Shown: positions 2,500-27,339 of the stretch, one piece after another
Layout of the letters: each line of letters starts with the position of its first letter
How positions within the stretch are numbered: position 1 is the stretch's first letter
Origin: Mycobacterium sp. EPa45
GTDB lineage: Bacteria > Actinomycetota > Actinomycetes > Mycobacteriales > Mycobacteriaceae
Assembly: GCF_001021385.1 (NCBI RefSeq)
Contig: NZ_CP011773.1
Coordinates: 5,828,001-5,892,000 of the forward strand
Direction: 5' to 3'
DNA length: 64,000 nt
Notes under the pieces: generated by a model
What the model saw: only the letters and a program-made list of their open reading frames with translations
The model's database searches: none
What the model was told of the DNA's origin: nothing
Program-made: the position numbers and the translations under genes

Positions 2500-2513
2500 A
2501 GCTATGTATAGCT
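2500..2513. promoter_or_regulatory. Palindrome in the gap before the Rv3761c-type gene
   Basis: AGCTAT-GT-ATAGCT has perfect 6-base arms. It fills the 13-base gap between the histidine phosphatase stop and the GTG of the phosphotransferase. The AT-rich core could also serve as a -10 element for a short-leader transcript. Arms of this length can occur by chance, so this is weak evidence. Confidence 0.3.
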
Positions 2514-4396: not shown

Positions 4397-4439
4397 CAAC
4401 CGCTCCGTCCTACCTCGGTGATTGCAGTCAGAAGTGACA

Positions 4440-5684: not shown

Positions 5685-6728
5685 ATGACGAGAACGGAAA
5701 GTCCCGCCGATCTGGACACCGCGGTACTCGGCCGATGGCTGGACACCCAGGACGCCCCGGGCCAGGGCGAGGAGCCCATCGCTGAGGTCCTCAAGGGCGG
5801 GTCACAGAACGTGCTCTACCGGATCAACCGCGGTGGCAAGCGCATGGTGCTGCGGATGCCCGGCCCCCGCGCGGACGAACGCCGTCTGAACGAACTGCTC
5901 CGCGAGATCCGCCTGGAACGCGCACTGAAGGGCACCGACGTGCCGCACGCCGAGTTGATCGCCGCCGACGAAAGCGGTGAAGTTCTGGGCAAGCCGTTCT
6001 ATCTGATGAAAGAGGTCGACGGCTGGAGCCCGATGGAGGGCGGGTGGGAGTCCCCGTTCGACACCGACCTCGACGCCCGTCGCGAACTGGCCTTCCAGCT
6101 GATCGAGGGTGCGGCGAAGCTGGGCCGGGTGGACTGGAAGGCCCAGGGGCTTGAGGGGTTCGGAAAGCCGGACGGCTTCCACGACCGACAGGTGGATCGC
6201 TGGTTGTCGTTCCTGGCATCTTTCAAAGTGCGTGAACTGCCCGGCCTGGACGTCGCGTCGGAGTGGTTGCGCAACAACCGGCCCGCGCACTACACCCCGG
6301 GAATCATGCACGGGGACTACCAGTTCGCCAATGTCATGTACGCCCACGGGGCACCCGGACGGCTCGCCGCGATCGTCGACTGGGAGATGACCACCATCGG
6401 CGACCCGCTGCTCGACGTCGCGTGGGCGCTGCTCGGTTACGACGGGGAGCACCCGAAGGAGACCGGCTTCTACCTGCCGATGGACGGTATGCCCACCCGC
6501 AGTGAGCTGTTGGCGCATTACGAGAAGATCAGCGGGCTGTCGACCGAGAACATCCACTACTACCTGGTGCTGGCCAACTGGAAGCTGGGCATCGTCTTGG
6601 AGAAGACGTACGCCGCGGCGGTCAACGGTGGCAAGGCCGACCCGAAAGTGGTCGAGGCGTTCGGGGCGATGGTGCCCGATCTGATCGCCACCGCGGCACG
6701 GTTGGCGCAATCCGGCGAGGCGGCCTGA
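5685..6728 (+). CDS. Aminoglycoside-phosphotransferase-like acyl-CoA kinase
   Basis: This 347-residue APH-fold kinase is a paralogue of the enzymes at 1473 and 24378. Key motifs are KGGSQNVLY (37-45), MHGDYQFANVMY (His209, Asp211, Asn216) and VDWEMTT with Asp232. I chose the ATG at 5685 because GAGGAG lies 5 bases upstream; an in-frame ATG at 5652 falls inside the palindrome and -10 region. Genes follow at 1-10 base spacing: SDR, acyl-CoA dehydrogenase, TetR and quinone oxidoreductase. It resembles the kinase domain of ACAD10/ACAD11 and LvaA, which phosphorylate the hydroxyl of 4-hydroxyacyl-CoAs. That role is inferred here. Confidence 0.87.
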   Translation: MTRTESPADLDTAVLGRWLDTQDAPGQGEEPIAEVLKGGSQNVLYRINRGGKRMVLRMPGPRADERRLNELLREIRLERALKGTDVPHAELIAADESGEVLGKPFYLMKEVDGWSPMEGGWESPFDTDLDARRELAFQLIEGAAKLGRVDWKAQGLEGFGKPDGFHDRQVDRWLSFLASFKVRELPGLDVASEWLRNNRPAHYTPGIMHGDYQFANVMYAHGAPGRLAAIVDWEMTTIGDPLLDVAWALLGYDGEHPKETGFYLPMDGMPTRSELLAHYEKISGLSTENIHYYLVLANWKLGIVLEKTYAAAVNGGKADPKVVEAFGAMVPDLIATAARLAQSGEAA

Positions 6729-6729
6729 A

Positions 6730-7488
6730 ATGGGTTACGCCGATGAGTTGTTCGATCTGACCGGTCGCGTAGTGCTGGTCACCGGCGGCAGCCGCGGCCT
6801 GGGCCGCGAGATGGCGATGGCGGCCGCGCGGTGCGGCGCAGACGTGATCATCGCCAGCCGCAAATTCGACTCCTGCGTGGCCACCGCCAAGGAGATCGAA
6901 GCCGAAACCGGCTGCACCGCAATGCCTTACGGCGTTCACGTCGGACGATGGGACGAGCTCGACGGGTTGGTGCAGGCGGTTTACGACCGGTTCGGCAAGC
7001 TCGACGTGCTGGTGAACAACGCCGGCATGTCACCGACCTACGACAAGCTCACCAACGTCAGCGAGAAGCTGTTCGACGCGGTGATGAACCTGAATCTGAA
7101 GGGGCCATTCCGGCTTTCGGCTCTGGTCGGTGAACGCATGGTCGCCGACGGGGGCGGGGTGATTATCAACGTCAGCACTCATGGTTCGTTGCGACCGCAC
7201 CCGTCGTTCATTCCCTACGCGGCGTCGAAGGCCGGGCTGAACGCGATGACCGAGGGTCTGGCGGCGGCATTCGGGCCGACGGTGCGGGTCAACACGCTGA
7301 TGCCAGGTCCGTTCCTCACCGACATCAGCAAGGCCTGGGACTTCGGTGTGGAGAATCCGTTCGGCAGACACGCCCTTCAACGCGCGGGCGAGCCAGCCGA
7401 AATCATCGGCGCCGCATTGTTCTTGATGTCCGACGCATCCAGCTTCACTACCGGCTCGATCATTCGCGCCGACGGTGGCATCCCCTAA
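6730..7488 (+). CDS. Short-chain dehydrogenase/reductase
   Basis: This is a 252-residue classical SDR with the cofactor motif TGGSRGLG (18-25), NNAG (96-99) and the catalytic Ser149, Tyr163 and Lys167 (YAASK). It is an NAD(P)-dependent oxidoreductase acting on a hydroxy or keto group, probably on an acyl-CoA intermediate of the same operon. It starts one base after the phosphotransferase stop and is followed by the dehydrogenase 10 bases later, so translational coupling is likely. Confidence 0.88.
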   Translation: MGYADELFDLTGRVVLVTGGSRGLGREMAMAAARCGADVIIASRKFDSCVATAKEIEAETGCTAMPYGVHVGRWDELDGLVQAVYDRFGKLDVLVNNAGMSPTYDKLTNVSEKLFDAVMNLNLKGPFRLSALVGERMVADGGGVIINVSTHGSLRPHPSFIPYAASKAGLNAMTEGLAAAFGPTVRVNTLMPGPFLTDISKAWDFGVENPFGRHALQRAGEPAEIIGAALFLMSDASSFTTGSIIRADGGIP

Positions 7489-7498
7489 GGAGTCAACA

Positions 7499-8806
7499 AT
7501 GGCCTGGGACTTTTCCACCGAACCGGAATTCGAGGAGAAGCTCGAGTGGATCCGGAACTTCGTCCGCGACGAGATCGAACCACTCGAAGTGATATTTCCC
7601 AGTTGCGAGTTCCTGCCGCTGAACGAGGAGCGCCGCAGGATCGTCGACCCGCTCAAGCAGAAGGTCCGCGACCAGGGCTTGTGGGCACCACACCTCGGAC
7701 CCGAGCTGGGTGGCCAGGGTTTCGGGGCGGTCAAGCTCACGCTGATCAACGAAATCCTAGGCCGCGCAACGTGGTCGTCGATCATCTTCGGGACGCAGGC
7801 GCCCGATACCGGTAACGCCGAGATCCTCGCCCGGTTCGGCACCGAGGAGCAGAAGCAGCAGTACTTGACCGGGCTGCTGTCCGGGGAGATCTTCTCAACC
7901 TTCTCGATGACCGAACCGCAGGGCGGGTCCGATCCTCGGGTCTTCACCACCCGTGCGGTACGCGATGGTGACGACTGGGTGATCAATGGCCGCAAGTACT
8001 GGTCGTCGAACGCTTCGGTGGCGTCGTTCTTCATCGTCGTCGCGATCACTGATCCGGATGTGCCGGTGCACACGGGGGCGTCGACGTTCCTGGTCCCGGC
8101 CGACACCCCCGGGGTGAACATCGAGGCGACGCATCACCTGGTCGGCTCGTACTCCCACGATCCCGGCCACTCACTGGTCCACTACGACAACGTGCGGGTG
8201 CCGGCGTCGGCGATGCTCGGCGACGAGGGCCACGGCTTCCACGTCGCCCAGTCCCGGCTGGCCGGCGGGCGGCTCCATCACGCCATGCGCTCCATCGGCG
8301 TGGCCCAGCGGGCGATCGACGCGATGGCCCGGCGCGCGAAAAGCCGATTCACACAGGGAAGTCTGCTGGCCGACAAGCAGCTGATCCAGGAGATGGTCGC
8401 CGACTCCTTCGTCGAGCTGACCCAGTTCCGGCTGATGGTGTTGTATGCCGCCTGGCTGGTCGACACCGGTGGCGAGCGGGCCGCGCGGGAGGCAATCGCC
8501 GCCTGCAAGATCCAGACCGCCAGTGTGCTGAAGTCCATCGGCCTTCGGGCGATCCAAGTACACGGCGGCCTCGGCCTGACCGACCAGATGCCGTTGACCA
8601 GCGTCCTGATGGGCGGGATCACGCTGGGGCTGGCCGACGGACCGACCGAGGCGCACAAGGTCAACCTGGCCCGGCAGATCCTCAAGGGCTACGAGCCGGA
8701 CGACCCGGTCTGGCCCAGCGAGTTCCTGCCCAACCGGATCGAGCGAGCGCGGGAGAAGTACGGCCATCTGATCGATCGCATTCCCGCGCTGCCTGTTTCG
8801 CCGTGA
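7499..8806 (+). CDS. Acyl-CoA dehydrogenase, ACAD10/11-like
   Basis: This is a 435-residue flavoprotein. The start at 7499 is set by AAGGAG 5-10 bases upstream. TEPQGGSDPR is the FAD/substrate loop. The C-terminal region has LADGPTEAHK (about 378-387) followed by NLARQIL, in place of the YEGT motif of classical enzymes. DGP(D/T)E(V/A)H is the signature I associate with ACAD10/ACAD11 and bacterial LvaC-type enzymes. It overlaps the TetR start by 4 bases. The expected role is elimination or oxidation of an acyl-CoA made by the kinase and SDR of the operon. Substrate chain length is unknown. Confidence 0.88.
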   Translation: MAWDFSTEPEFEEKLEWIRNFVRDEIEPLEVIFPSCEFLPLNEERRRIVDPLKQKVRDQGLWAPHLGPELGGQGFGAVKLTLINEILGRATWSSIIFGTQAPDTGNAEILARFGTEEQKQQYLTGLLSGEIFSTFSMTEPQGGSDPRVFTTRAVRDGDDWVINGRKYWSSNASVASFFIVVAITDPDVPVHTGASTFLVPADTPGVNIEATHHLVGSYSHDPGHSLVHYDNVRVPASAMLGDEGHGFHVAQSRLAGGRLHHAMRSIGVAQRAIDAMARRAKSRFTQGSLLADKQLIQEMVADSFVELTQFRLMVLYAAWLVDTGGERAAREAIAACKIQTASVLKSIGLRAIQVHGGLGLTDQMPLTSVLMGGITLGLADGPTEAHKVNLARQILKGYEPDDPVWPSEFLPNRIERAREKYGHLIDRIPALPVSP

Positions 8807-9426
8807 CCAGCAGAGCCGCGGCCGCCGTCGTGCGCGCCCTCGACGACCGTCAGCGGGAGGCCACCGAGGAGGTCGAGCGCATCCTGGCTGCCGCCGTGCG
8901 CGAGATGCAGCGGGTCTCCCCCGATGCCCCGCGGGTCAGCGACATCGTCGCTGCGGCCGGGGTGTCCAACAAGGCCTTCTACCGGTATTTCGCCGGTAAG
9001 GACGATCTGATGCTGGCCGTCATGGAACGCGGTGTCGGCCTTGTGGTCTCGTATCTCGAGCATCAGATGACCAAGGAGAGTACGCCGGTCGGCAAGATCA
9101 CCCGCTGGATCAGCGGGGCGCTGGCCCAGGTGGCCGACCCCGAGTTGATCGGAATGAGCCGAGCCCTGGTGGGGCAGATGTCGGATTCGGACAAGCGTCG
9201 CATGGGCGAGGAGGAGACAATGGCCGCGATGCGTGAGCTGCTCGTCGATCCGATCCGCGAACTGGGCAGTACCGATCCCCAGCGTGACGCTGACGCGGTG
9301 TTCGTGTGTACCGTCGGCACGATGCGTCGCTATGTGGACTCCACCGACCAGCCAGGTCGCAAGGACATCAGCCACCTCGTCGGCTTCTGCCTGCGTGGTC
9401 TCGGTGTACCGGAGGCGATGAGCTGA
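8803..9426 (+). CDS. TetR family transcriptional regulator
   Basis: This is a 207-residue protein starting with GTG that overlaps the dehydrogenase stop (GTGA). The N-terminal helix-turn-helix is clear: VSDIVAAAGVSNKAFYRYFAGKDDL (about 44-68), with the usual FYRYF recognition-helix end. The C-terminal half is a divergent ligand and dimerisation domain. It is co-transcribed with the acyl-CoA genes and probably controls them through the palindrome at 5647-5663. An acyl-CoA effector is plausible for this context but not shown. Confidence 0.88.
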   Translation: MTSRAAAAVVRALDDRQREATEEVERILAAAVREMQRVSPDAPRVSDIVAAAGVSNKAFYRYFAGKDDLMLAVMERGVGLVVSYLEHQMTKESTPVGKITRWISGALAQVADPELIGMSRALVGQMSDSDKRRMGEEETMAAMRELLVDPIRELGSTDPQRDADAVFVCTVGTMRRYVDSTDQPGRKDISHLVGFCLRGLGVPEAMS

Positions 9427-10400
9427 TGCGCGCCGTCGTCTGCCGCGAGTACGGCGCGCCAGAGAATCTGGTCCTTGACGAACTGCCCGACCCCACAGCG
9501 GGTCCCGGTCAGGTGGTGGTCAAGGTGCACGCCGCCGCGGTCAACTACCCAGACGTGCTTCTGATCGGCGGCAAGTACCAGATCAAGGTGCCACCGCCGT
9601 TCAGCCCGGGCAGCGAGATGGCCGGTGAGGTGCTGTCCGTCGGCGACGGCGTCGACTACCGGCCAGGGGATCGAGTGTCAGCGACGACATTCGTCGGCGC
9701 CTTCGCCGAGCAAGCCGTGGTGGACGCCCGCGGTCTGACCCGCATCCCCGACGGGGTCGATTACGCCGATGCCGCGGCGTTCGGCGTCACCAACCGCACC
9801 GCCTACTACACCCTGCGCACCGTCGCCCCGGTCGAACCCGGCGACTGGGTTGTGGTCCTCGGCGCCGGCGGTGGGGTCGGCCTGGCGGCCGTCGACATCG
9901 CAGTCCTGTTCGGTGCCAAGGTGATTGCCGCTGCGTCGAGTCCGGAGAAGCTCGAGGTGTGCCGCGCCCGCGGCGCCACGGAAGTCATCGACTACGACCG
10001 GGAAGACCTCAAGAGCCGGCTCAAGGAGATCACCGGCGAGCGTGGCACGCAGGTGGTTCTCGACCCGGTCGGCGGCCGCTACTCCGAGCCGGCGCTGCGC
10101 AGTTTGGGCCGCGGCGGGAAGTTCATCACGCTGGGCTATGCCGCCGGCTCCATCCCGGCGATCCCATTGAACCTCGTCATGCTCAAGGGAATCACCGTGC
10201 AAGGCATGGAGATCCGGACGTTCGCTTCGGACTACCCGGACCAGATTGCCCGCGACGACGCCGAGATCGCGCAGCTGTTCGCCGAGGGCAAGCTCCGCCC
10301 CTACATCGGCGCGCGATTCCCGCTCGACGAGGCGGCCACCGCGCTGCGCTATATCGCCGACCGCAAGGCGATCGGCAAGGTCGTCATCGACGTCGCCTGA
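9426..10400 (+). CDS. NADPH:quinone oxidoreductase family protein (zinc-independent MDR)
   Basis: This 324-residue medium-chain dehydrogenase/reductase resembles QOR/zeta-crystallin enzymes. The GroES-like N-domain is followed by the Rossmann motif GAGGGVGLAAV. The cysteine and histidine ligands of zinc alcohol dehydrogenases are absent. The ATG at 9426 overlaps the TetR stop (TGATG), so it is the last gene of the 5685 operon. It may reduce an enoyl or quinone group. A 22-bp-arm hairpin lies just past the stop, between it and the convergent alkyl-sulfatase gene. Confidence 0.86.
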   Translation: MRAVVCREYGAPENLVLDELPDPTAGPGQVVVKVHAAAVNYPDVLLIGGKYQIKVPPPFSPGSEMAGEVLSVGDGVDYRPGDRVSATTFVGAFAEQAVVDARGLTRIPDGVDYADAAAFGVTNRTAYYTLRTVAPVEPGDWVVVLGAGGGVGLAAVDIAVLFGAKVIAAASSPEKLEVCRARGATEVIDYDREDLKSRLKEITGERGTQVVLDPVGGRYSEPALRSLGRGGKFITLGYAAGSIPAIPLNLVMLKGITVQGMEIRTFASDYPDQIARDDAEIAQLFAEGKLRPYIGARFPLDEAATALRYIADRKAIGKVVIDVA

Positions 10401-10404
10401 CTCA

Positions 10405-10466
10405 CGCGAGCAGACGCAGAATCGCATATTTTGACCACACTTCGTGCGATTCTGCGTCTGCTCGCG
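10405..10466. terminator. Perfect 22-bp-arm hairpin between convergent genes (bidirectional terminator or dispersed repeat)
   Basis: The arms 10405-10426 and 10445-10466 are perfect inverted repeats (begin CGCGAGCAGACGC, end AATCGCA) around an 18-base loop. The hairpin starts 4 bases after the stop at 10400, facing the stop of the convergent gene at 10499. It lacks a U-tract. From memory, GAGCAGACGCAAAATCGC-like sequences recur between genes in mycobacteria, so it may be a dispersed palindromic element doing a terminator's work. Confidence 0.65.
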
Positions 10467-10498
10467 GGGAAAGGGGAGAGGGGAAAGGGGAAAGCGGT

Positions 10499-12376
10499 CT
10501 AGGGCGTGATGATGTTGAAGCTCGGGTCCGGCCGATCCAGCGCACCCAGCAGTGTCTGCAACGCTTGCGGGTCGCCGGTGATCTCCATACCCGGAGATGT
10601 GAAATCCCCCGCGGAGACCGCCAATAGCCGCAATTTGGTCGCGAACCGGACGGTAGCGGTCGCCGTCGACTCGTCGGCCGGGCACTGGCGGTAGACCAGC
10701 ACACCGTTGCGCAGGGTGAGCCGATAGTTGGTGCCGAGGTCGCCGAAGGACAAATCGAGTGCGATGTCGACATCCCAGGCCCGCGGGCCGTTCACGCTGA
10801 TCGCCAGCACGTCGAACATCTGCTCCGGAGTGAGCTGAGCGAGCAGTGTCGTCGGTGACACCGAGGTGGGGGTGCCGAAGTTGCCGTCGCGCAATTCGGT
10901 CGCTCCGGACAGGAAGAAGTTGCGCCATGTTGCGCATTCAGCTCCATACGCCAGCTGCTCGAGGGTGTCGGCGTACAGCTCCCGAGCACCGGCATGATTC
11001 TCGTCGGTGAATATCACGTGGTCGAGAAGAGTTGCAGCCCAACGGTAATCACCGGACTCAGCGGCGGCGCGAGCCAGCTCGACCACTCGGTCGGCGCCGC
11101 CCATCGCTTCGACGTAGCGCGGCCCGATCGCCTCCGGCGGATGCGCCCACAGCCGCGCCGGGTTGCCGTCGAACCAGCCCATGTACCGCTGATAGACCGC
11201 TTTGACGTTGTGGCTGACCGATCCGTAGTAGCCGTGCGCGTGCCACGCCTTCTGCAGCGCGGGCGGCATCTGAAAATTCTCGGCGATCTCGATGCCGGTG
11301 TAGCCCTGGTTGAGCTGGCGCAGCGTCTGGTCGTGCAGGTAGGCATAGAGGTCGCGCTGCAGAGATAGGAATTCGACGATGTTGTCCTGCCCCCACGTCG
11401 GCCAGTGGTGCGAGGCGAACACCACGTCGGTGCGGTCGGCGAACGTGTCGATCGCCTCGGTCAGGTAGCCCGCCCAGCCGTGCGGGTCGCGAACCAGAGC
11501 ACCGCGCAACGTCAGCAGGTTGTGCAGGTTGTGCGTCGCGTTCTCCGCCATGCACAGGGCCCGGAATTTCGGGAAGTAGAAGTGCATCTCGGCAGGTGCC
11601 TCGGTGCCCGGCGCCATCTGGAATTCGATCTCGATGCCGTCGATGGTGTGCTTCTCACCGGTGGTGGTGATGTCGACGGTCGGCACGATGATCGCGACCT
11701 CACCGGTCGACGGTGTCTGCCCGAGCCCGCAGCCGACCTGCCCCTGCGGCCCGCGGTCGAGGACCGCGCCGTACATGTAGCCGGCCCGGCGGGCCATCGC
11801 GGTCCCGGCGTAAACGTTCTCCTGCACCGCGTGTTCAGTGAAGCCCTCGGGCGCGAGCACAGCGACCTTGCCGGCGTCGACGTCGGCCTGCGTGGTCACC
11901 CCGAGGACACCGCCGAAGTGGTCGACGTGCGAATGCGTGTAGATCACTGCGACGACGGGGCGGTCACCGCGATGCGCGCGATAGAGCGCGAGGGCGGCCG
12001 CGGCGGTTTCGGTGGAGACCAGCGGGTCGATCACCACGATCCCGGTGTCGCCCTCGATGAAGCTGATGTTGGACAGGTCCAGGCCGCGGACCTGGTAGAT
12101 GCCCTCGACGACCTCGTACAGACCCTGCTTGGTGGCCAGCATGCTCTGTCGCCACAGACTGGGGTGGACCGATGTCGGTGCGTCCCCGTCGATGAATCCA
12201 TAGGCGTCGTTGTCCCACACCACCCGTCCGTCGGCGGCTTTCACCACGCACGGCGTCATCGCGGCGATGAAGCCGCGGTCGGCATCGGCGAAGTCAGCGG
12301 TGTCCTCGAACGGCAGGGACTTCAGGTGCTCGGCATGTGCGGCCTCGATGACCGCGGACGGCGGCTTGCTTGTCAT
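10499..12376 (-). CDS. Alkyl/aryl-sulfatase, metallo-beta-lactamase fold (Rv3762c-type)
   Basis: This 625-residue protein resembles SdsA1-type alkyl-sulfatases, which release sulfate from primary or secondary alkyl sulfates. The binuclear zinc motif THSHVDHFGG is at 147-156 (His148, His150, Asp152, His153). EMHFYFPKFRALCMAEN is the second conserved block. A helical dimerisation region follows, and the C-terminal 120 residues look like the SCP2-like domain of this family. No signal peptide is visible. The start ATG at 12376 gives MTSKPPSAV. Proximity to the Rv3761c-type gene matches M. tuberculosis order. Confidence 0.92.
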   Translation of the reverse strand: MTSKPPSAVIEAAHAEHLKSLPFEDTADFADADRGFIAAMTPCVVKAADGRVVWDNDAYGFIDGDAPTSVHPSLWRQSMLATKQGLYEVVEGIYQVRGLDLSNISFIEGDTGIVVIDPLVSTETAAAALALYRAHRGDRPVVAVIYTHSHVDHFGGVLGVTTQADVDAGKVAVLAPEGFTEHAVQENVYAGTAMARRAGYMYGAVLDRGPQGQVGCGLGQTPSTGEVAIIVPTVDITTTGEKHTIDGIEIEFQMAPGTEAPAEMHFYFPKFRALCMAENATHNLHNLLTLRGALVRDPHGWAGYLTEAIDTFADRTDVVFASHHWPTWGQDNIVEFLSLQRDLYAYLHDQTLRQLNQGYTGIEIAENFQMPPALQKAWHAHGYYGSVSHNVKAVYQRYMGWFDGNPARLWAHPPEAIGPRYVEAMGGADRVVELARAAAESGDYRWAATLLDHVIFTDENHAGARELYADTLEQLAYGAECATWRNFFLSGATELRDGNFGTPTSVSPTTLLAQLTPEQMFDVLAISVNGPRAWDVDIALDLSFGDLGTNYRLTLRNGVLVYRQCPADESTATATVRFATKLRLLAVSAGDFTSPGMEITGDPQALQTLLGALDRPDPSFNIITP

Positions 12377-12404
12377 ACCGCCATCTTCGCTCAGAGCGGT
12401 GAAC

Positions 12405-14390: not shown

Positions 14391-14463
14391 GACCCGTACT
14401 CCCGCCGCCCGATACATCAGGATGGTACGAAGTATGGGCCCTGCGCGGACCGTAATTGACGAG

Positions 14464-17612: not shown

Positions 17613-17656
17613 GCTTTGATAGTCGGCCGTGGCGGTGAGGGCTCAATTTGTGTTTG

Positions 17657-20952: not shown

Positions 20953-21664
20953 AACCCGCGCCGCGCAACGTGTGGATCATCGGATCGCGGCCGCTGTCGA
21001 TCTTCTTGCGCAGGTATGAGATGTACAGCTCGACGATGTTGGACCGACCGCCGAAGTCATAGCTCCAAACCCGGTCCAGGATCTGAGCTTTCGACAGCAC
21101 CCGCTTGGGGTTGCGCATGAGGAAGCGGAGCAGTTCGAACTCGGTGGATGTCAGCGAGACCGGTTCACCGGCTCGGGTCACCTCGTGGCTGTCCTCGTCG
21201 AGCACCAGATCGCCGACGACGATCTGTGCGCCACTGTCCTCGGTGGTCACGCCGGTACGACGCAGTAAGGCCCGCAGCCGCAGCACGACCTCCTCGATGG
21301 AGAACGGCTTGGTGACATAGTCATCGCCGCCGGCGGTCAGCCCGGCGATGCGATCTTCCAATGCGTCTTTGGCGGTCAACAGCAGCACCGGCAGTTGGGG
21401 GTTCTGTTCGCGCAGCTTGCGCAGCACGTCCAAGCCGCTCATGTCGGGCAGCATGATGTCGAGGACCACCGCATCCGGACGTGCGCTGCGGGCGGCGGCG
21501 ATCGCCGACGCGCCGTCCGCGGCGGTGGCGATGGTCCAGCCCTCGTAGCGCAGCGCCATCGACACCATCTCGGCCAGCACGGTTTCGTCGTCCACCACCA
21601 GCACCGTGATCGGGTTTCCGTCGGCCCGGCGCATCACCACACGTTCCGCCGCTGAAGAGGTCAT
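20930..21664 (-). CDS. tcrX: OmpR-family response regulator, TcrX-like
   Basis: This is a 244-residue regulator. The receiver domain has acidic pocket DDE (25-27), phospho-acceptor Asp69 in VVLDIMLP, and Lys in TKPFS. The C-terminal winged helix ends with IHTLRGAGYVLKP. GGAG lies about 5 bases before the ATG at 21664. It is the first gene of a five-gene operon: regulator, kinase, GT39, GT2-GtrA, GT39. Direct repeats TTCCTATG, spaced 11 bases, lie 31-49 bases upstream and are the likely autoregulatory site. The name tcrX is assigned by synteny with Rv3765c. Confidence 0.87.
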   Translation of the reverse strand: MTSSAAERVVMRRADGNPITVLVVDDETVLAEMVSMALRYEGWTIATAADGASAIAAARSARPDAVVLDIMLPDMSGLDVLRKLREQNPQLPVLLLTAKDALEDRIAGLTAGGDDYVTKPFSIEEVVLRLRALLRRTGVTTEDSGAQIVVGDLVLDEDSHEVTRAGEPVSLTSTEFELLRFLMRNPKRVLSKAQILDRVWSYDFGGRSNIVELYISYLRKKIDSGRDPMIHTLRGAGYVLKPAS

Positions 21665-21694
21665 GTTCTCCAGTATGGGAGCGGCGATGAGCGG

Positions 21695-21713
21695 TTCCTA
21701 TGGCATTCCTATG
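21695..21713. promoter_or_regulatory. Tandem direct repeat, probable response-regulator binding site
   Basis: TTCCTATG occurs at 21695-21702 and again at 21706-21713, an 11-base period expected for head-to-tail OmpR-family dimers. It lies in the 130-base gap between the divergent tcrX-like gene and the glycine-rich exported-protein gene, so it could control both directions. Confidence 0.6.
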
Positions 21714-21794
21714 CGCCCACTGTGAAACCGCACGCATAGTGAGCGCTGACCGAGGACACAGCGGGCGCACAGCTTGACTGCCCACCGTGGGGGC

Positions 21795-22280
21795 ATGAGT
21801 GTCGAACAGCAGCCCGTATGGGGAGCGCCTGCGGAGCACCCCAAGACCTGGTCAACCCGCACGACTGTGGCTGCGGTCGCAATCGCGGCCGCGCTTGCCG
21901 CGGTCGGTGGCGCGGTGGTGTACGCCGCTACCGGCGGTGGCGGACACGCGGGCGGCCCGCCCGGTTGGGGTGGCGGCGGGCCGGGTGGTCCCGGTGGCCC
22001 GGGTGGCCCCGGCGGCTTTCAGCGGCCGCTGCACGGCGAGAACGTCGTCTCCGACGGCAAGGGCGGATTCACCACCGAACTGACCCAGACCGGCGACGTC
22101 ACCGCCGCGTCGGACACCTCGGTCACCGTCCGCAGCCAGGACGGCTACAGCCACACCTACGTGCTGAACACCGACACCCGTAAGCCGCCGCAACCGCTGC
22201 AAACCGGCAGCCAGGTTTCAGTGAAGGCGACCGAGCAGGGCGGCGCGGCTACAGCGACGGTCGTGATGCCCGCCAGATAA
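21795..22280 (+). CDS. Glycine-rich exported or membrane-anchored protein, divergent from tcrX-like gene
   Basis: This predicted 161-residue protein starts at the ATG at 21795. A single hydrophobic segment (about residues 22-45) acts as signal or anchor. A 40-residue Gly/Pro-rich linker with repeated GGP follows. The C-terminal beta-rich domain of about 90 residues (VVSDGKGGFTTELTQTGDVTAASDTSVTVRSQDGY) looks like the DUF5666-type OB-like fold. The linker is not a PE_PGRS repeat. It shares an intergenic region with the two-component operon and is a candidate target or signal partner of that system (inference). I do not recognise a named orthologue. Confidence 0.72.
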   Translation: MSVEQQPVWGAPAEHPKTWSTRTTVAAVAIAAALAAVGGAVVYAATGGGGHAGGPPGWGGGGPGGPGGPGGPGGFQRPLHGENVVSDGKGGFTTELTQTGDVTAASDTSVTVRSQDGYSHTYVLNTDTRKPPQPLQTGSQVSVKATEQGGAATATVVMPAR

Positions 22281-22287
22281 TCGTTCG

Positions 22288-22680
22288 GTGAACTTTTTCG
22301 AGGTCATCGAGACGGTGGGCAAAGCGATCGACGCGACGGGGGTCGCCGCCATCGCGATCGGAGCGTTGCTCTCCGCTGCGGGTGTGCTCCGGCGCTTGCG
22401 AACCGGCGACGCCTATCGGGCGTTCCGCCAACAGCTCGGACGTTCGATCCTGCTGGGACTGGAACTGCTGGTCGCCGCGGACATCATCCGCACCGTCGCC
22501 GTGACACCGGACGCCCGCAGTGTGGCGGTGTTGGCCGGCATCGTGCTGATCCGGACGTTCTTGAGTTTCTCGCTGGAGCTGGAGATCACCGGCTATTGGC
22601 CGTGGCAGAAAAACCGCCAGCCGCAAGCCACGCCTGACCCCGCCGAGCCGACGCCCGGGACAGCCACGCATCCGCAATGA
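22288..22680 (+). CDS. DUF1622 family membrane protein
   Basis: This is a 130-residue protein starting with GTG, 8 bases after the previous stop. About three hydrophobic helices are present (18-38, 55-70, 80-98), with ILLGLELLVAADIIRTV typical of the DUF1622 family of small inner-membrane proteins. The function is unknown. Its last 95 bases overlap the 3' end of a convergent gene on the other strand, and its tail is proline- and threonine-rich. Confidence 0.8.
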   Translation: MNFFEVIETVGKAIDATGVAAIAIGALLSAAGVLRRLRTGDAYRAFRQQLGRSILLGLELLVAADIIRTVAVTPDARSVAVLAGIVLIRTFLSFSLELEITGYWPWQKNRQPQATPDPAEPTPGTATHPQ

Positions 22681-23017
22681 GCTCACGCAATTCGGCTCGC
22701 CCGATTTCACCGAGACGGCCGGCGCGGACGAGCACCGACGGATGCCCACCGAAATGTTCGGTGGTGAAGAACGGTGAGTTCGGGTCCTGGACGAGGCTGA
22801 GCTTGTCGGCCTCGGACTCCACCCAAAGGATGACATCGGTGTAGCGTTCGCCGGTTTCCGGATCGGCCGCGTCCGGCCGCGGAGTGCGGAAGTACACGAA
22901 CGACTTTCCGCCGACCTGATAGATCGGGTTGCCCTTGGGGCCTTCGATCCGGGTGACGTGCGGCATCGACGCCGCGAACTCGTGGACATCGCTGACCTTC
23001 GCCGGACGGTCATGCAT
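22586..23017 (-). CDS. MmcQ/YjbR family protein
   Basis: This 143-residue protein contains VSDVHEFAASMPHVTR, then KSFVYFRTPRP, ending with ELRELIADAWLSRA. These match the small MmcQ/YjbR double-wing fold, which resembles DNA-binding proteins but has no established biochemical role. It overlaps the DUF1622 gene tail to tail by 95 bases and diverges from the ThrE-type gene. The C-terminal 20 residues past the YjbR fold are poorly conserved-looking and lie within the overlap. Confidence 0.78.
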   Translation of the reverse strand: MHDRPAKVSDVHEFAASMPHVTRIEGPKGNPIYQVGGKSFVYFRTPRPDAADPETGERYTDVILWVESEADKLSLVQDPNSPFFTTEHFGGHPSVLVRAGRLGEIGRAELRELIADAWLSRASARRGQAWLAAGGFSATANSR

Positions 23018-23050
23018 ACCTTGACGCTACCGGTTCGCAATGATGCGGAT

Positions 23051-24367
23051 ATGGACGAAAAGCGGCATGCCCGGCGCACACGGATCTTCGATGCGATCCG
23101 CAAGACTCCCCCGGAACCGCTTGGTCCGCCGGATTCCCACGACCAGGCCGAGGTGGCGGCGATGCTGCGGGAGATCGGTATCGCACTGATCGAGGTAGAA
23201 CAGCCGACGCAGCTGGTGTTTTCACGGCTGATGGAGATCGCCACGCAGTACACCACCCAACCCGTGCGCCTGGTCGTGTTGCCCACTGTGCTGATGATTC
23301 AGGTGGGCACCGTCGGCTATGAGGTCGACACCTCCACGACGTACTCGCTGCAGCTGGACATGGCCGGGCGCATCGACGACATCGCCAGCCTGGCCGCGGT
23401 CGGCGCGATCACCCCCGCTGACGCGATCGCGGCGATATCCCAGGCGCGCAGTCTGCGCCCGCGGTTCGGTCCGGTCACGACCACGCTCGGATATGCCCTC
23501 ACCACAATCGGTTTCGGCATGATCATCAATCCGACCTGGGCATCGCTGCCGGGGTACCTGTTCCTCGGCCTCATCGTCGGGGCAATCGCCCAACTCGGCA
23601 GGCCCTTCCCGTCGCTGAACCCGGTGCTGCCGACCGCGGCGGCGATGATCGTGACGATGCTGGCGACCTGGTTCGTCGCGGACACCGCCAACGACGGCCT
23701 GCTGCGCGTGATCGCCCCAGCACTGGTCGCGATGCTGCCCGGAATGTCGCTGACCATCGGCGCGATGGAGCTGGCCAGCAACCAGCTGATCAGCGGCACC
23801 AGCCGGCTGGTCTACGGCGTCGCCCAGCTGGCGCTGCTGGTGTTCGGGGTGGCATTGGGCGTCCACGTGGCGGGAGAGGTCAGCCCGCAGACTCCGTCGA
23901 CGCAAATGGGTCCGTGGTCGTTGTACGTGGCGATCATCGTGGTGGCGATCGGGCTCTACGTGTATCTATCCGCCCCGCGCGGATCGCTGATCTGGCTCGC
24001 GGCCGCCATCGGAGTTGCACTCGTCGGTCAGGCAATCGCCGGAAAGTTCGTCGCCGCAGCCTATTCCGGCTTCATCGGCGCCTTCCTGACCGTTCCGTTC
24101 GCAATGCTCGCTGCCCGGATCAGAACCTCTCCGCCGGCAATCGTGATGATGCTGGCGGCGTTCTGGGCCCTGGTTCCCGGCGCGCTGAGCTTCGAATCGG
24201 TGAGCGTGGCCGCGACCGGCACCCGCGTCGGCACAGCGAGTCTGGGGGTCACCGGTGCGGCAATCCTGTCGATCGCGTTGGGCACCGTGATTGGCTGGAG
24301 TGTGTTCCATACCATCGACAGCCGGTTGCCGTGGCCGAAAGGATTGGCTCAACCAACCGTACGGTAG
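23051..24367 (+). CDS. ThrE-type threonine/serine exporter family protein
   Basis: The predicted product has 438 residues from the ATG at 23051. The soluble N-terminal ThrE domain (about 35-150) has MLREIGIALIEVEQPTQLVFSRL. Around ten membrane helices follow, with PGYLFLGLIVGAIAQLGRPFPS and LPGMSLTIGAMELASNQLISGTSRLVYG typical of the family. The product is a secondary exporter for threonine, serine or related solutes. An in-frame ATG at 22958 would overlap the divergent YjbR gene and was not used. The last codons lie inside the palindrome that precedes the next operon. Confidence 0.85.
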   Translation: MDEKRHARRTRIFDAIRKTPPEPLGPPDSHDQAEVAAMLREIGIALIEVEQPTQLVFSRLMEIATQYTTQPVRLVVLPTVLMIQVGTVGYEVDTSTTYSLQLDMAGRIDDIASLAAVGAITPADAIAAISQARSLRPRFGPVTTTLGYALTTIGFGMIINPTWASLPGYLFLGLIVGAIAQLGRPFPSLNPVLPTAAAMIVTMLATWFVADTANDGLLRVIAPALVAMLPGMSLTIGAMELASNQLISGTSRLVYGVAQLALLVFGVALGVHVAGEVSPQTPSTQMGPWSLYVAIIVVAIGLYVYLSAPRGSLIWLAAAIGVALVGQAIAGKFVAAAYSGFIGAFLTVPFAMLAARIRTSPPAIVMMLAAFWALVPGALSFESVSVAATGTRVGTASLGVTGAAILSIALGTVIGWSVFHTIDSRLPWPKGLAQPTVR

Positions 24368-24370
24368 GTT
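24351..24370. promoter_or_regulatory. 20-bp near-perfect palindrome upstream of kinase-ACAD-SDR operon
   Basis: AACCAACCGT-ACGGTAGGTT is palindromic at nine of ten paired positions, with the core ACCGTACGGT perfect. It overlaps the ThrE stop and ends 7 bases before the GTG of the phosphotransferase. TACGGT within it could act as a -10. It looks like a TetR- or GntR-type operator, but no regulator is encoded in the operon. Confidence 0.55.
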
Positions 24371-24377
24371 CACCGGG

Positions 24378-25406
24378 GTGGACGAGCTGAGCGCAGTCAG
24401 CGCATGGATGTCGAAGCAGGGCCTGGGTGAGGGCCCGCTCGAAAACGTCTCCGAAATCACCGGCGGCACCCAGAACGTCATGCTCCGCTTCACCCGGTCG
24501 GACCGCGAGTACGTGTTCCGCCGAGGCCCCCGCCACCTGCGTCCCGTGAGCAACAAGGTGATCCTCCGGGAGACCCGGGTCCTGCACGCACTGGCCGGCA
24601 CCGATGTCCCGCACCCGCGGTTGATTGCAGTGTGTGACGACACGTCCGTGCTGGGCGAAGCGGTGTTCTATCTGATGGAGCCGGTCGACGGATTCAACGC
24701 CGGATCGGTGCTGCCGCCACTGCACGCCAATGATCCCGGCATCCGGCACGGAATGGGCCTGTCGATGGCCGATGCGGCGGCCAAACTCGGCGCCGTCGAC
24801 CATGTCGCGGTCGGCCTGGCCGATTTCGGCAAGCCCGACGGATTCTTGGAACGCCAAGTGCCGCGGTGGCTTTCCGAGCTGGAGTCCTACAGCGGGTTCG
24901 ACAACTACCCGGGGCCCGACATCGGCGATGTCGACGCCGTCGCCACCTGGCTGCAGAAGAATCAGCCCGCCACGTGGCAGCCGGGCATCATGCACGGCGA
25001 TTACCACGCTGCCAACGTGATGTTCTCGCCGACCGGCCCCGAGGTGGTGGCGATCGTCGACTGGGAGATGTGCACCATCGGCGATCCCCTGCTGGACCTC
25101 GCCTGGATGCTGGCCACCTGGTACTCGCCGGGCCGCGACTCGGTGCTGGGCAACGCCCTCATGGGTGCCGGCGACCTGGCCGGCCCTGACGAGCTGATCG
25201 AGCGCTACGCCCAGAACACCACCCGCGACCTGTCCAATATCGACTGGTACACGGTGCTGGCCTGTTTCAAGCTCGGCATCATCCTCGAGGGTTCGAATGC
25301 CCGGGCCGCTGCAGGCTTGGCGCCCAAGGAAATTGGCGACCACCTACACACCGCGACGGTGCGCTTGTTCGAGCGAGCTGTGGCACTGATGGAGGGACAA
25401 CGATGA
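24378..25406 (+). CDS. Aminoglycoside-phosphotransferase-like acyl-CoA kinase
   Basis: This 342-residue APH-fold kinase starts at the GTG at 24378, just past the operator-like palindrome. Motifs are ITGGTQNVML (27-36), MHGDYHAANVMF (His206, Asp208, Asn213) and IVDWEMCTIGDPLLDLAW (Asp228). It is the third such gene in the window and overlaps the downstream acyl-CoA dehydrogenase by four bases (ATGA). This tight kinase-dehydrogenase pairing parallels the single-polypeptide ACAD10/ACAD11 arrangement. The substrate is inferred to be a hydroxyacyl-CoA. Confidence 0.87.
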   Translation: MDELSAVSAWMSKQGLGEGPLENVSEITGGTQNVMLRFTRSDREYVFRRGPRHLRPVSNKVILRETRVLHALAGTDVPHPRLIAVCDDTSVLGEAVFYLMEPVDGFNAGSVLPPLHANDPGIRHGMGLSMADAAAKLGAVDHVAVGLADFGKPDGFLERQVPRWLSELESYSGFDNYPGPDIGDVDAVATWLQKNQPATWQPGIMHGDYHAANVMFSPTGPEVVAIVDWEMCTIGDPLLDLAWMLATWYSPGRDSVLGNALMGAGDLAGPDELIERYAQNTTRDLSNIDWYTVLACFKLGIILEGSNARAAAGLAPKEIGDHLHTATVRLFERAVALMEGQR

Positions 25407-26581
25407 TCGATTTCGAGATTCCCAGCGACACCGCGGCGTTGCGCGACGAGATTCGCGCGTTCGTCGTCGACAAAATCATTCCCTACGAACGAGATCCGCG
25501 CATCACGCGGCACGGACCGAACGAGGAGCTGCGCACCGAACTGGTCGGACTGGCACGGGACGCCGGCCTGCTGACCTTCCAGGCGCCGCACCGATTCGGT
25601 GGCCGTGAGCCGTCCCACCGCGACCAGGCGGTGCTCTTCGAAGCCGCCGGCTGGTCCACGCTCGGCCCGGTCGCGCTGAACTGCGCAGCGCCCGACGAGG
25701 GCAACATGTTCGTGCTGTCCAAGATCGCGACCGAAGAGCAGGCAGAGAAGTTCCTGGTTCCGGTGATCGACGGCAGGCAGCGGTCGGTGTTCGCGATGAC
25801 CGAGCCGGGCGGGGCCGGATCCGACCCGAATCAACTTGCCACCGAGGCTGTTTTCGACGGCACCGACTATGTGATCAACGGCCGCAAGTGGCTGATCACC
25901 GGTGCCAATAAGGCACGGACGTGGATCATCATGGCTCGGGTAGCGCCGAATCCCCATGGTGCGGACGGCCCGACGTTGTTCCTGTGCGATGGACAGACGC
26001 AGGGCATCGAGCTCGAGCGGGTGATGGACACCATGGACCGCAATTACGTCGAGGGCCACGGCGTGATCCAGTTCAACAACCTGCGGCTGCCCGCCTCAGC
26101 GGTGCTCGGCGAGGTCGGCCAGGCCTTGCGCTACGCCCAGTTACGCTTGACGCCGGCTAGATTGACCCACTGTATGCGGTGGCTGGGTGCGGCATCACGA
26201 GCGCACTCGATCGCGGTCGAACATGCCCGAACGCGCACCGGTTTCGGCAAGCCGCTCGGAGAGCATCAGGGCGTGAGCTTCATGCTGGCCGACAACGAGA
26301 TCGCACTGCAGCAATGCCGGCTGGCGATCTGGTGGGCCTGCTGGGCGCTGGACACCGGGGCCAAGGGCCGCCACGAGAGTTCGATGGTGAAGGCCTACGT
26401 GTCCGAGGAATTGTTCAAGGTGGCCGACCGCTGCGTGCAAATCCTGGGCGGCATGGGCATTTCCGACGAGACACCGGTCGGCATGATCTTCTCCGATATG
26501 CGCGCGTTCCGGATCTACGACGGCCCGACCGAAGTGCACAAGTATGCAATCGCCCGCCAGGTACTGAGGAACCCGTCATGA
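25403..26581 (+). CDS. Acyl-CoA dehydrogenase, ACAD10/11-like
   Basis: This is a 392-residue flavoprotein with the TEPGGAGSDPNQL loop, YVINGRKWLITGA, and the C-terminal signature YDGPTEVHK (372-380) followed by AIARQVL. The last motif is nearly the same as in the dehydrogenase at 7499 and differs from the YGGT-type enzyme at 3227. ATGA overlaps join it to the kinase before and the SDR after it, so the three are translated as a unit. It probably acts directly on the kinase product. Confidence 0.88.
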   Translation: MIDFEIPSDTAALRDEIRAFVVDKIIPYERDPRITRHGPNEELRTELVGLARDAGLLTFQAPHRFGGREPSHRDQAVLFEAAGWSTLGPVALNCAAPDEGNMFVLSKIATEEQAEKFLVPVIDGRQRSVFAMTEPGGAGSDPNQLATEAVFDGTDYVINGRKWLITGANKARTWIIMARVAPNPHGADGPTLFLCDGQTQGIELERVMDTMDRNYVEGHGVIQFNNLRLPASAVLGEVGQALRYAQLRLTPARLTHCMRWLGAASRAHSIAVEHARTRTGFGKPLGEHQGVSFMLADNEIALQQCRLAIWWACWALDTGAKGRHESSMVKAYVSEELFKVADRCVQILGGMGISDETPVGMIFSDMRAFRIYDGPTEVHKYAIARQVLRNPS

Positions 26582-27339
26582 GCATCCTGGATAACTTTCG
26601 GCTCGACGACAAGGTTGTCATCGTGACCGGCGCGTCGTCCGGATTGGGAGTGTCGTTCGCGAAGGCCTTCGCCGAGGCGGGCGCCCACCTGGTGCTGGGC
26701 GCCCGGCGGGTGGAGCAGATGGCGGGCACCGCGGCGCTCGTCGAAGAGGCCGGCCGCAAGGTCTACACCCGCAAGACCGATGTGGTCGATCCCGACCAGT
26801 GCCAGCAGCTGGTCGAGTCGTCTATGAAGGAATTTGGCCGGGTCGACATCTTGGTCAACAACGCCGGGGTGGGCACCGCGGTGCCGGCCACCCGCGAAAC
26901 GCCCGAACAATTCCGCAAGGTCGTCGACGTGAACCTCAACGGTTCGTACTGGATGGCACAGGCTTGCGGTCGCGTCATGCAGGCCGGGAGCTCGATCATC
27001 AATATTTCCAGCATTCTTGGCATCACGACCGGCGGTCTGCCGCAGGCCGCGTACAGCGCGTCGAAAGCCGCCGTGATCGGCCTGACCAGGGATCTGGCCC
27101 AACAGTGGGGACCGCGCAAGGGAATTCGCGTCAATGCCCTCGCTCCCGGCTTTTTCCAGAGCGAGATGACCGACGAATATCAGCCCGGCTACCTCGAGAC
27201 CCAGCTACCACGCGTCATGCTGGGCAGAATGGGGGATCCCGCCGAATTGGCCGCTACCGCAGTCTGGCTCGCGTCGCCGGCTGGTGGGTATGTGACGGGC
27301 CAGACAATTGTTGTCGACGGCGGGCTGACCATCACCTAG
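26578..27339 (+). CDS. Short-chain dehydrogenase/reductase
   Basis: This is a 253-residue classical SDR with TGASSGLG (17-24), NNAG (94-97), a catalytic Ser at 144-145, Tyr159 and Lys163 (YSASK). The C-terminus has the usual PAGGYVTGQTIVVDGG. It overlaps the dehydrogenase stop by four bases (ATGA) and ends the kinase-dehydrogenase-SDR operon. It probably oxidises or reduces a hydroxyacyl or ketoacyl intermediate. The protein is not especially similar to the SDR at 6730, so the two operons are related modules rather than a recent duplication. Confidence 0.88.
   Translation: MSILDNFRLDDKVVIVTGASSGLGVSFAKAFAEAGAHLVLGARRVEQMAGTAALVEEAGRKVYTRKTDVVDPDQCQQLVESSMKEFGRVDILVNNAGVGTAVPATRETPEQFRKVVDVNLNGSYWMAQACGRVMQAGSSIINISSILGITTGGLPQAAYSASKAAVIGLTRDLAQQWGPRKGIRVNALAPGFFQSEMTDEYQPGYLETQLPRVMLGRMGDPAELAATAVWLASPAGGYVTGQTIVVDGGLTIT

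What the first reader, a model, noticed from the sequence alone, without database searches (positions are those of the whole stretch)
5685..27339. Split ACAD10/11-like kinase-dehydrogenase modules, two complete operons plus a third kinase
APH-fold kinases at 5685 and 24378 are each operonic with an acyl-CoA dehydrogenase and an SDR. The dehydrogenases carry DGPTEAHK or DGPTEVHK in place of the classical YEGT base motif. Animal ACAD10 and ACAD11 fuse the same kinase and dehydrogenase types and have been reported to phosphorylate and then eliminate the 4-hydroxyl of 4-hydroxyacyl-CoAs; Pseudomonas LvaA/LvaC are a separate-gene case. I infer that these operons break down 4-hydroxy acids or a steroid/lactone-derived hydroxyacyl-CoA by phosphorylation. 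A third kinase (1473, Rv3761c type) and a YGGT-type dehydrogenase (3227) are nearby on the other strand, so the Rv3761c 'fadE36' label is probably a misnomer.
Basis: partly seen in the sequence, partly recalled or inferred. Interest (0 to 1): 0.7.

Follow-up and report, generated by a model that had tools for sequence, protein, structure and literature searches.

The report
Mycobacterial split hydroxy-acid kinase–dehydrogenase operons
A mycobacterium-like bacterium appears to carry, as separate neighbouring genes, the two-step machinery that animals carry as one fused protein (ACAD10/11) for feeding hydroxylated fatty acids into normal fat burning, and a related gene called an acyl-CoA dehydrogenase in tuberculosis papers looks like a kinase instead.

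Summary
Two operons encode an APH-fold kinase, an SDR and an acyl-CoA dehydrogenase (ACAD) that keeps the residues mouse ACAD11 needs: the Arg/His/Arg phosphate site (R....R..H.MR) and Asp for the usual Glu base. In a tree both ACADs fall with ACAD11 and with ACADs of Pseudomonas lva-like operons, apart from the classical ACADs sampled; without the motif columns that group is not rejected. Kinase–ACAD neighbours recur in most loci opened. Best reading: two split phosphorylate-then-eliminate modules for 4-hydroxyacyl-CoAs, working like ACAD10/11 and LvaA/LvaC. Substrates are unknown; steroid/lactone is unsupported. The third kinase (FadE36/Rv3761c type by recalled gene order) has no ACAD domain. 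Its YGGT neighbour is in 5 of 18 loci opened, so hardly its partner. Its sister kinases adjoin such an ACAD in 12 of 12 loci. In 118 same-genus genomes, 91 have this kinase and all 91 have a close, unlinked ACAD11-type (FadE2-type) ACAD, beside a PtpB-family phosphatase in 10 of 10 orthologs opened. I predict an unlinked FadE36–FadE2 pair. New variant of a known kind; no activity is shown.

The parts
5685..6728 (+). Kinase A, APH fold (HGDYQFAN at 6309-6332, RQVDRW at 6186-6203, DWE at 6378-6386)
   Evidence: Pfam APH E 5.6e-33; PDB matches include the ACAD11 kinase domain; motifs
6730..7488 (+). SDR A (TGGSRGLG, YAASK); possible 4-oxoacyl-CoA reductase (LvaD-like role) or later dehydrogenase
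   Evidence: Pfam adh_short_C2; catalytic motifs; role inferred
7499..8806 (+). ACAD A, phosphate-eliminating type (RLAGGRLHHAMR at 8255-8290, DGPTEAHK at 8636-8659)
   Evidence: Pfam ACAD domains; residue match to mouse ACAD11; tree
8803..9426 (+). TetR regulator, last gene of module A
   Evidence: Pfam TetR_N; 4-base overlap with ACAD A; flagged beside ACAD A in L117-L121 too
24378..25406 (+). Kinase B, APH fold (HGDYHAAN at 24993-25016, RQVPRW at 24852-24869)
   Evidence: Pfam APH E 7.6e-43; PDB match to the ACAD11 kinase domain; motifs
25403..26581 (+). ACAD B, LvaC-like type (RLTPARLTHCMR at 26144-26179, DGPTEVHK at 26519-26542)
   Evidence: 53-54% identical to lva-like-locus ACADs of two Pseudomonas species
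26578..27339 (+). SDR B (TGASSGLG, YSASK)
   Evidence: start at ATG 26578 overlapping the ACAD stop
1473..2498 (-). Kinase C (Rv3761c/FadE36 type by recalled gene order), ACAD10/11-type kinase without an ACAD domain
   Evidence: APH only; best of the window kinases to the ACAD11 chain (130.7 bits; B 96.3; A 84.6); tree
2512..3120 (-). Histidine phosphatase (PF00300; RHA and SHGG present) paired with kinase C
   Evidence: beside kinase C in 18 of 18 loci opened; motifs
3227..4489 (-). ACAD C, YGGT type without the phosphate site; not of this system
   Evidence: joining it to the DGP clade is rejected, p 0.0008; present in 5 of 18 kinase C loci opened
4440..5597 (-). Class III CoA-transferase beside ACAD C
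   Evidence: Pfam CoA_transf_3; in 6 of 18 kinase C loci opened
10499..12376 (-). Alkyl sulfatase (metallo-beta-lactamase fold), frequent neighbour of kinase C
   Evidence: Pfam Alkyl_sulf_dimr and Alkyl_sulf_C over cut-off; homolog flagged in 15 of 18 kinase C loci opened; co-directional with phosphatase and kinase in L124-L126

Best explanation
Modules A and B are split ACAD10/11-type modules. Step 1 (inferred): the kinase puts the gamma phosphate of ATP on the 4-hydroxyl of a 4-hydroxyacyl-CoA. Step 2 (inferred from residues needed in mouse ACAD10/11): the ACAD binds the 4-phosphate with Arg/His/Arg. Its Asp removes the alpha proton, FAD takes and gives back a hydride, and phosphate leaves, giving a 2-enoyl-CoA for beta-oxidation without net oxidation. 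The chemistry explains why position 4 matters, since the leaving group must be allylic to the transient 2-enoyl bond (my inference). Step 0 or 3 (open): the SDR makes the 4-hydroxyacyl-CoA from a 4-oxoacyl-CoA, as LvaD does, or oxidises a later intermediate. Kinase C is the same kind of kinase, now separated from any ACAD of this type. Its most likely partner is the unlinked ACAD11-type (FadE2-type) ACAD.
For: Residues equivalent to mouse ACAD11 R626, R631, H634, R637 and D753 are all present in ACADs A and B and absent from ACAD C. Changes at this site ablated ACAD activity in mouse ACAD10/11, nonconservative ones at R626, H634 and R637 being the most disruptive (PMC12440821 section 7). Tree: types B, A, ACAD11 and L001 form one group of 50 of 62 rows, support 97. 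Without the motif columns the quick search misses that group, but holding it together gives a tree likelier by 1.57 log units (p 0.56), and adding ACAD C is rejected at p 0.0008. Kinase beside DGP-type ACAD: 18 of 20 type-A and 16 of 20 type-B loci that I chose to open, 56 of 80 LvaC-type loci (the best 80 of a capped list), 9 of 11 plasmid loci opened. Streptomyces L022 has kinase-SDR-ACAD in the order of module A at 53/64/62% identity. Kinase C: its sister kinases lie beside a DGP-type ACAD in 12 of 12 loci. Orthologs at 60% identity or more occur in 91 of 118 genomes, all 91 with the FadE2-type ACAD at E <= 1e-150; 0 of the 13 genomes without that close ACAD have one (Fisher p 2.9e-10). In 7 of those 13 a more distant ACAD11-type ACAD (55-57%) lies in a run with its own kinase and SDRs, so only the kinase-less FadE2-type locus goes with kinase C. 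FadE2 and FadE36 are both listed as up in starved M. bovis BCG (PMC11250799 passages).
Against: No enzyme of the window has been assayed. Kinase identity to the ACAD11 kinase domain is only 25-31%, and APH-fold kinases have many substrates. ACAD A has HAMR where mouse has HCMR. 24 of 80 LvaC-type loci show no kinase within 6 kb (12 of the 80 loci are shorter than 9 kb). Neither module has a CoA ligase or a DUF6285 gene beside it. For kinase C: 14 of 118 genomes have the FadE2-type ACAD without the kinase at 60% or more. 'Without FadE2-type' depends on the cut-off: at E <= 1e-60, 10 of the 13 have an ACAD11-type ACAD at 50-57% identity, 3 of them with no kinase in the 1.5 kb flanks read. The profile is not corrected for kinship (perhaps three or four independent absences, a guess). 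Kinase C lies within 8 kb of module A in 38 of 40 genomes that have both (hand count), so ACAD A could be its partner instead.
Confidence: 0.8

Rival explanations
1. Module B (and perhaps A) handles 4-oxo acids of the levulinate kind: the SDR first reduces the 4-oxoacyl-CoA, then kinase and ACAD act. This is the main mechanism with a narrower substrate.
For: An SDR is in both modules and within 6 kb in 47 of 80 LvaC-type loci. LvaD, an oxidoreductase listed as an SDR, reduces levulinyl-CoA (PMC6692424 passages). ACAD B is of the lva-like-operon type.
Against: SDR A and SDR B are only 34-38% identical to the lva-like-locus SDRs, ordinary within SDRs. No ligase or transporter gene lies beside the modules.
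Confidence: 0.35
2. Kinase C works with the ACAD of neighbouring module A, or with ACAD C, and not with the distant FadE2-type ACAD.
For: Kinase C and module A are within 8 kb in 38 of 40 genomes with both (hand count). ACAD C lies two genes away in the window.
Against: Module A has its own kinase. ACAD C is in 5 of 18 loci opened and lacks the phosphate site. In L123-L127 kinase C stands without module A, and those genomes have no ACAD A match at 72% or more. None of the 13 genomes without a close FadE2-type ACAD has kinase C at 60% or more.
Confidence: 0.25
3. The kinases act on other small molecules (drug or osmolyte kinases of the APH fold) and the ACADs are ordinary dehydrogenases.
For: APH is a broad family: 27 matches in this genome.
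Against: The specific Asp and phosphate-site residues, the enrichment of kinases beside those ACADs, and the RQV arginine that in the mouse model contacts CoA (R176).
Confidence: 0.07
4. The modules degrade steroid- or lactone-derived hydroxyacyl-CoAs.
For: One further kinase-ACAD pair in this genome (L001) sits with a cytochrome P450 and an aldehyde dehydrogenase.
Against: No steroid-degradation gene was recognised beside modules A or B among the frames I translated; none of the passages read makes the link for these genes.
Confidence: 0.1

Closest known systems
Mammalian ACAD10/ACAD11 (4-hydroxyacyl-CoA kinase fused to phosphate-eliminating ACAD; PMC12440821, PMC11342911)
   Same: Same two enzyme types; all five mechanistic ACAD positions checked are conserved in A and B; kinases share the RQV arginine and catalytic residues.
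   Different: Separate genes with an SDR and, in A, a TetR regulator; ACADs A and B are only about 35% identical to ACAD11. The closest ACAD11-type ACAD found in this genome is L003 (56% identical), with no kinase match in its 12 kb locus.
Pseudomonas lva operon (levulinate; summarised in PMC6692424)
   Same: Kinase-ACAD-SDR order of module B as for lvaA-C-D; ACAD B is 53-54% identical to ACADs of the lva-like loci of P. guariconensis and P. citronellolis.
   Different: No DUF6285 (LvaB-like) gene, no ligase or symporter beside it, and a kinase of another subfamily (about 25% identical).
P. citronellolis LA18T variant with a histidine phosphatase beside the LvaA homolog (PMC6692424)
   Same: Histidine phosphatase beside a kinase of this kind, as with kinase C.
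   Different: In the window it goes with kinase C, which has no DGP-type ACAD in its own operon.
M. tuberculosis FadE36 (Rv3761c), FadE2 (Rv0154c) and PtpB (Rv0153c), labels from papers and recall
   Same: Kinase C and the L003 ACAD-phosphatase pair match these by gene order (recalled) and, for the phosphatase, by the CFAGKDRT signature quoted in PMC12108596.
   Different: In two papers FadE36 is called an acyl-CoA dehydrogenase; here the gene has only a kinase domain.

Membership tests
ACAD10/11-LvaC type phosphate-eliminating ACAD | Asp instead of Glu as catalytic base (mouse D753) | tested here: met
   ACADs A and B: D; ACAD C: G
ACAD10/11-LvaC type phosphate-eliminating ACAD | Phosphate site R626, H634, R637 plus R631 | tested here: met
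   A: RLAGGRLHHAMR, B: RLTPARLTHCMR; absent in C
ACAD10/11-LvaC type phosphate-eliminating ACAD | Falls in one clade with ACAD11 and lva-like-operon ACADs, apart from classical ACADs | tested here: met
   Support 97 with motif columns; without them the clade is not rejected and is likelier by 1.57 log units
[quoted passage not shown]
   needs purified protein
ACAD10/11-type 4-hydroxyacyl-CoA kinase | APH/PKL catalytic residues (HxD....N, DWE) | tested here: met
   kinases A, B, C
ACAD10/11-type 4-hydroxyacyl-CoA kinase | RQV arginine (mouse R176) and Arg next to the alpha-C Glu | tested here: met
   A, B, C keep both; Stutzerimonas and Azoarcus LvaA-type kinases lack both. The paper's number R86 did not fall on an Arg in the chain as I numbered it
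ACAD10/11-type 4-hydroxyacyl-CoA kinase | ATP-dependent phosphorylation of 4-hydroxyacyl-CoA | not testable with these tools
   needs an assay
ACAD10/11 fused protein | Kinase and ACAD in one chain | tested here: not met
   separate reading frames
lva operon | LvaB-like DUF6285 gene beside the kinase (that LvaB is DUF6285 is my inference from gene order and size) | tested here: not met
   only one PF19802 match in the whole genome, outside the window
lva operon | LvaA-subfamily kinase | tested here: not met
   kinases A, B, C lie outside the DUF6285-linked kinase clade
lva operon | LvaC-type ACAD (module B) | tested here: met
   clade with P. guariconensis and P. citronellolis lva-like-locus ACADs; KT2440 LvaC itself not in hand
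lva operon | LvaD-type SDR | tested here: inconclusive
   SDR present, 34-38% identical to lva-like-locus SDRs

The most novel reading that the evidence does not exclude
In most mycobacteria the ACAD11 machine is split across two distant loci. The FadE36-type kinase (with its histidine phosphatase) makes 4-phosphoacyl-CoA, and the FadE2-type ACAD eliminates the phosphate. The PtpB-family phosphatase found next to FadE2 has, at root, a metabolic role: it clears stalled phosphorylated hydroxyacyl intermediates inside the cell. This would give an enzyme family known as a secreted virulence phosphatase a lipid-metabolic origin.
Probability: 0.15. Interest if true: 0.85.

Novelty: new variant of a known kind. 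Interest (0 to 1): 0.55.

Why it matters
If true, a pathway described in mammals and Pseudomonas is multiplied in mycobacteria: at least six ACADs of this type in one genome, with kinases swapped between ACAD types. It would reassign FadE36, still called an acyl-CoA dehydrogenase in two 2024 papers, to a kinase. It would also give FadE2 a predicted reaction and offer a testable metabolic context for the PtpB phosphatase family. It makes the question of how mycobacteria dispose of hydroxylated and peroxidised fatty acids directly testable.

Tried and rejected
ACAD C as partner of kinase C: rejected (residues, tree, presence in 5 of 18 loci). Steroid or lactone substrate: no support found. Single-sequence fold of ACAD B: mean pLDDT 41, not used. 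NCBIfam: no family over its cut-off for the kinases or ACADs A, B and C. Literature: the listings showed no paper that I recognised as describing the split pair in mycobacteria or Rv3761c as a hydroxyacyl-CoA kinase; two searches listed only 12 of 30 and 25 of 72 papers. Rand et al. 2017 was not held, so I saw that work only as summarised in PMC6692424, PMC11342911 and PMC12440821.

Mended on checking: my two-sequence DUF6285 HMM missed the DUF6285 gene of L005, which Pfam finds. I therefore searched the whole genome with PF19802 and recounted with a wider HMM; the counts given are those. A looser search showed that 10 of the 13 genomes first counted as lacking the FadE2-type ACAD have a more distant ACAD11-type ACAD; the text now says so.

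Discrepancy left open: PMC11342911 states 62% and 56% identity of LvaC to ACAD10 and ACAD11, but ACADs of Pseudomonas lva-like loci are of type B, and type B (window ACAD B) is 35% identical to ACAD11.

Full report
WHAT IS THERE. The window lies in a 6.18 Mb genome at 5828001-5892000. I take it for a mycobacterium from recalled gene order (alkyl sulfatase, two-component pair, tRNA-Ser, hisC) and from the PtpB signature CFAGKDRT in its L003 locus, which PMC12108596 quotes for mycobacterial PtpB (passages). No tool named the organism. Module A is kinase-SDR-ACAD-TetR, module B kinase-ACAD-SDR, both tightly packed. On the other strand lie kinase C, a histidine phosphatase, a YGGT-type ACAD and a class III CoA-transferase.

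THE ACADS. In mouse ACAD11, R626, H634 and R637 are modelled to hold the 4-phosphate and changes there ablate activity; D753 is the base, and FAD is needed in a redox-active but not net-oxidising way (PMC12440821 sections 7 and 10, read in full). Aligned to the ACAD11 chain, ACADs A and B keep all of these; A has HAMR for HCMR. ACAD C keeps none. Best PDB matches of A and B are 4hr3 and ACAD11. In a 62-row tree the DGP-type ACADs form one group with four parts: type A, type B, the ACAD11 type and L001. Type B includes ACADs of Pseudomonas lva-like loci. With the motif columns removed the group is not rejected (p 0.56, held tree likelier by 1.57 log units), and adding ACAD C is rejected (p 0.0008).

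THE GENOME AROUND IT. Six DGP-type ACADs were found among the best-scoring ACADs opened: A, B, L001, L002, L003, L004; lower-scoring ones were not opened. L001 (139448-141649 of the genome) is a third kinase-ACAD pair, next to a cytochrome P450 and an aldehyde dehydrogenase. L003 is the closest to ACAD11 (56% identical). It overlaps a Y_phosphatase3 (PtpB-family) gene and lies near a pyridine nucleotide transhydrogenase gene. A kinase lies within 2.5 kb of 4 of 6 DGP-type ACADs and of 3 of 96 other ACAD places.

OTHER ORGANISMS. Streptomyces L022 has kinase-SDR-ACAD in the order of module A at 53, 64 and 62% identity. Pseudomonas guariconensis L164 holds a PrpR-like regulator, kinase, DUF6285, ACAD, SDR, ligase, symporter and DUF485 genes, the gene content described for lva. 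Its ACAD is 54% identical to ACAD B.

TWO KINASE SUBFAMILIES. Of kinases scoring 150 bits or more within 4 kb of a DGP-type ACAD, 24 of 25 with a DUF6285 neighbour lack the RQ motif and 69 of 81 without it have the motif; 12 without DUF6285 also lack it (which mends). The DUF6285-linked kinases form one clade (support 95). So kinases A, B and C are ACAD10/11-type, not LvaA-type. On the kinase tree the label 'partner is type B' needs eight changes, seven forced by starred branches (DUF6285-linked ones were labelled apart), meaning that kinases have been exchanged between ACAD types. Module B is such a mix: an LvaC-type ACAD with a kinase from the clade that mostly serves type-A ACADs. I infer that DUF6285 (the 12 kDa LvaB is named in PMC6692424) may supply for LvaA-type kinases what the RQV region supplies for the others.

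THE THIRD KINASE. Kinase C scores highest of the three against the ACAD11 chain (130.7 bits; B 96.3; A 84.6). In 18 of 18 loci opened a histidine phosphatase adjoins it. ACAD C is present in 5 of 18, module A in 13 of 18, the alkyl sulfatase in 15 of 18 (apart from the window the loci are 11-16 kb, so some absences may be cut-offs). Its sister kinases (47-54% identical) adjoin a DGP-type ACAD in 12 of 12 loci. Thus kinase C appears to have lost its neighbouring ACAD. Among 118 same-genus genomes (drawn evenly from a larger group), 91 have kinase C at 60% identity or more and all 91 have the FadE2-type ACAD at E <= 1e-150; 14 have the ACAD only and 13 neither (Fisher p 2.9e-10). The cut-off matters: at E <= 1e-60, 10 of those 13 have an ACAD11-type ACAD at 50-57% identity. 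In 7 of the 10 it lies in a run with its own kinase and SDRs; in 3 no kinase appears in the 1.5 kb flanks. The same seven genomes also carry the sister kinase with its own ACAD. So where the ACAD11-type enzyme is the kinase-less FadE2 form, kinase C is usually there; where it is another form, it mostly has a kinase beside it. The profile is not corrected for kinship. Of 13 FadE2-type loci opened, the PtpB-family gene adjoins in 10 of 10 orthologs; three second copies at 59-68% identity (L135-L137) lack it, and two of these have a kinase instead. Deinococcus L027 has ACAD11-type ACAD, SDRs, kinase and histidine phosphatase in one run, which ties these pieces together. The names FadE36 (Rv3761c) and FadE2 (Rv0154c) for these genes rest on recalled gene order; the adjacency of Rv0153c and Rv0154c follows from locus numbers in PMC6429209 and PMC10699116 (passages).

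HOW IT WORKS. Shown: genes, motifs, trees, co-occurrence. Inferred: phosphorylation at C4, elimination by the ACAD, and the SDR's place. Substrate: unknown. The SDR suggests 4-oxo acids as one source; breakdown of even-position hydroxy fatty acids (named for ricinoleate in PMC12440821) is another. The alkyl sulfatase beside kinase C (Pfam) hints that secondary alcohols freed from sulfate esters may feed it; this is speculation.

VERDICT. It is a new variant of a known kind. The part most worth a test is the predicted unlinked FadE36-type kinase and FadE2-type ACAD pair with its two phosphatase neighbours.

Noticed in passing
L001:6449-8650 (own genome 139448-141649): Third kinase-ACAD pair of the same kind in this genome, beside a cytochrome P450, an aldehyde dehydrogenase and a thiolase-like gene.
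   Followed up: partly
L003:4582-6611: ACAD11-type ACAD overlapping a PtpB-family tyrosine phosphatase; adjacency in 10 of 10 orthologous loci opened.
   Followed up: yes
L005:5485-8064: An LvaA-type kinase with a DUF6285 neighbour (the only one of this genome) next to an ACAD with a Glu base (EGAEEIQ) and no phosphate site; a pairing that does not fit the DGP scheme.
   Followed up: partly
L168 (P. citronellolis): A DUF6285 gene lies between kinase and histidine phosphatase, although PMC6692424 reports no lvaB homolog in the LA18T cluster.
   Followed up: no
window 10499-12376 and L123-L126, L128: Alkyl sulfatase conserved near kinase C; co-directional with phosphatase and kinase where module A is missing (L124-L126).
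   Followed up: partly
L261-L267: In seven same-genus genomes without the close FadE2-type ACAD, a divergent ACAD11-type ACAD sits in a kinase-SDR-ACAD-SDR run.
   Followed up: partly
L144-L146: Type-B ACADs of three same-class genomes (G273, G154, G290) with a low-scoring kinase and a CoA-transferase-like gene beside them.
   Followed up: no
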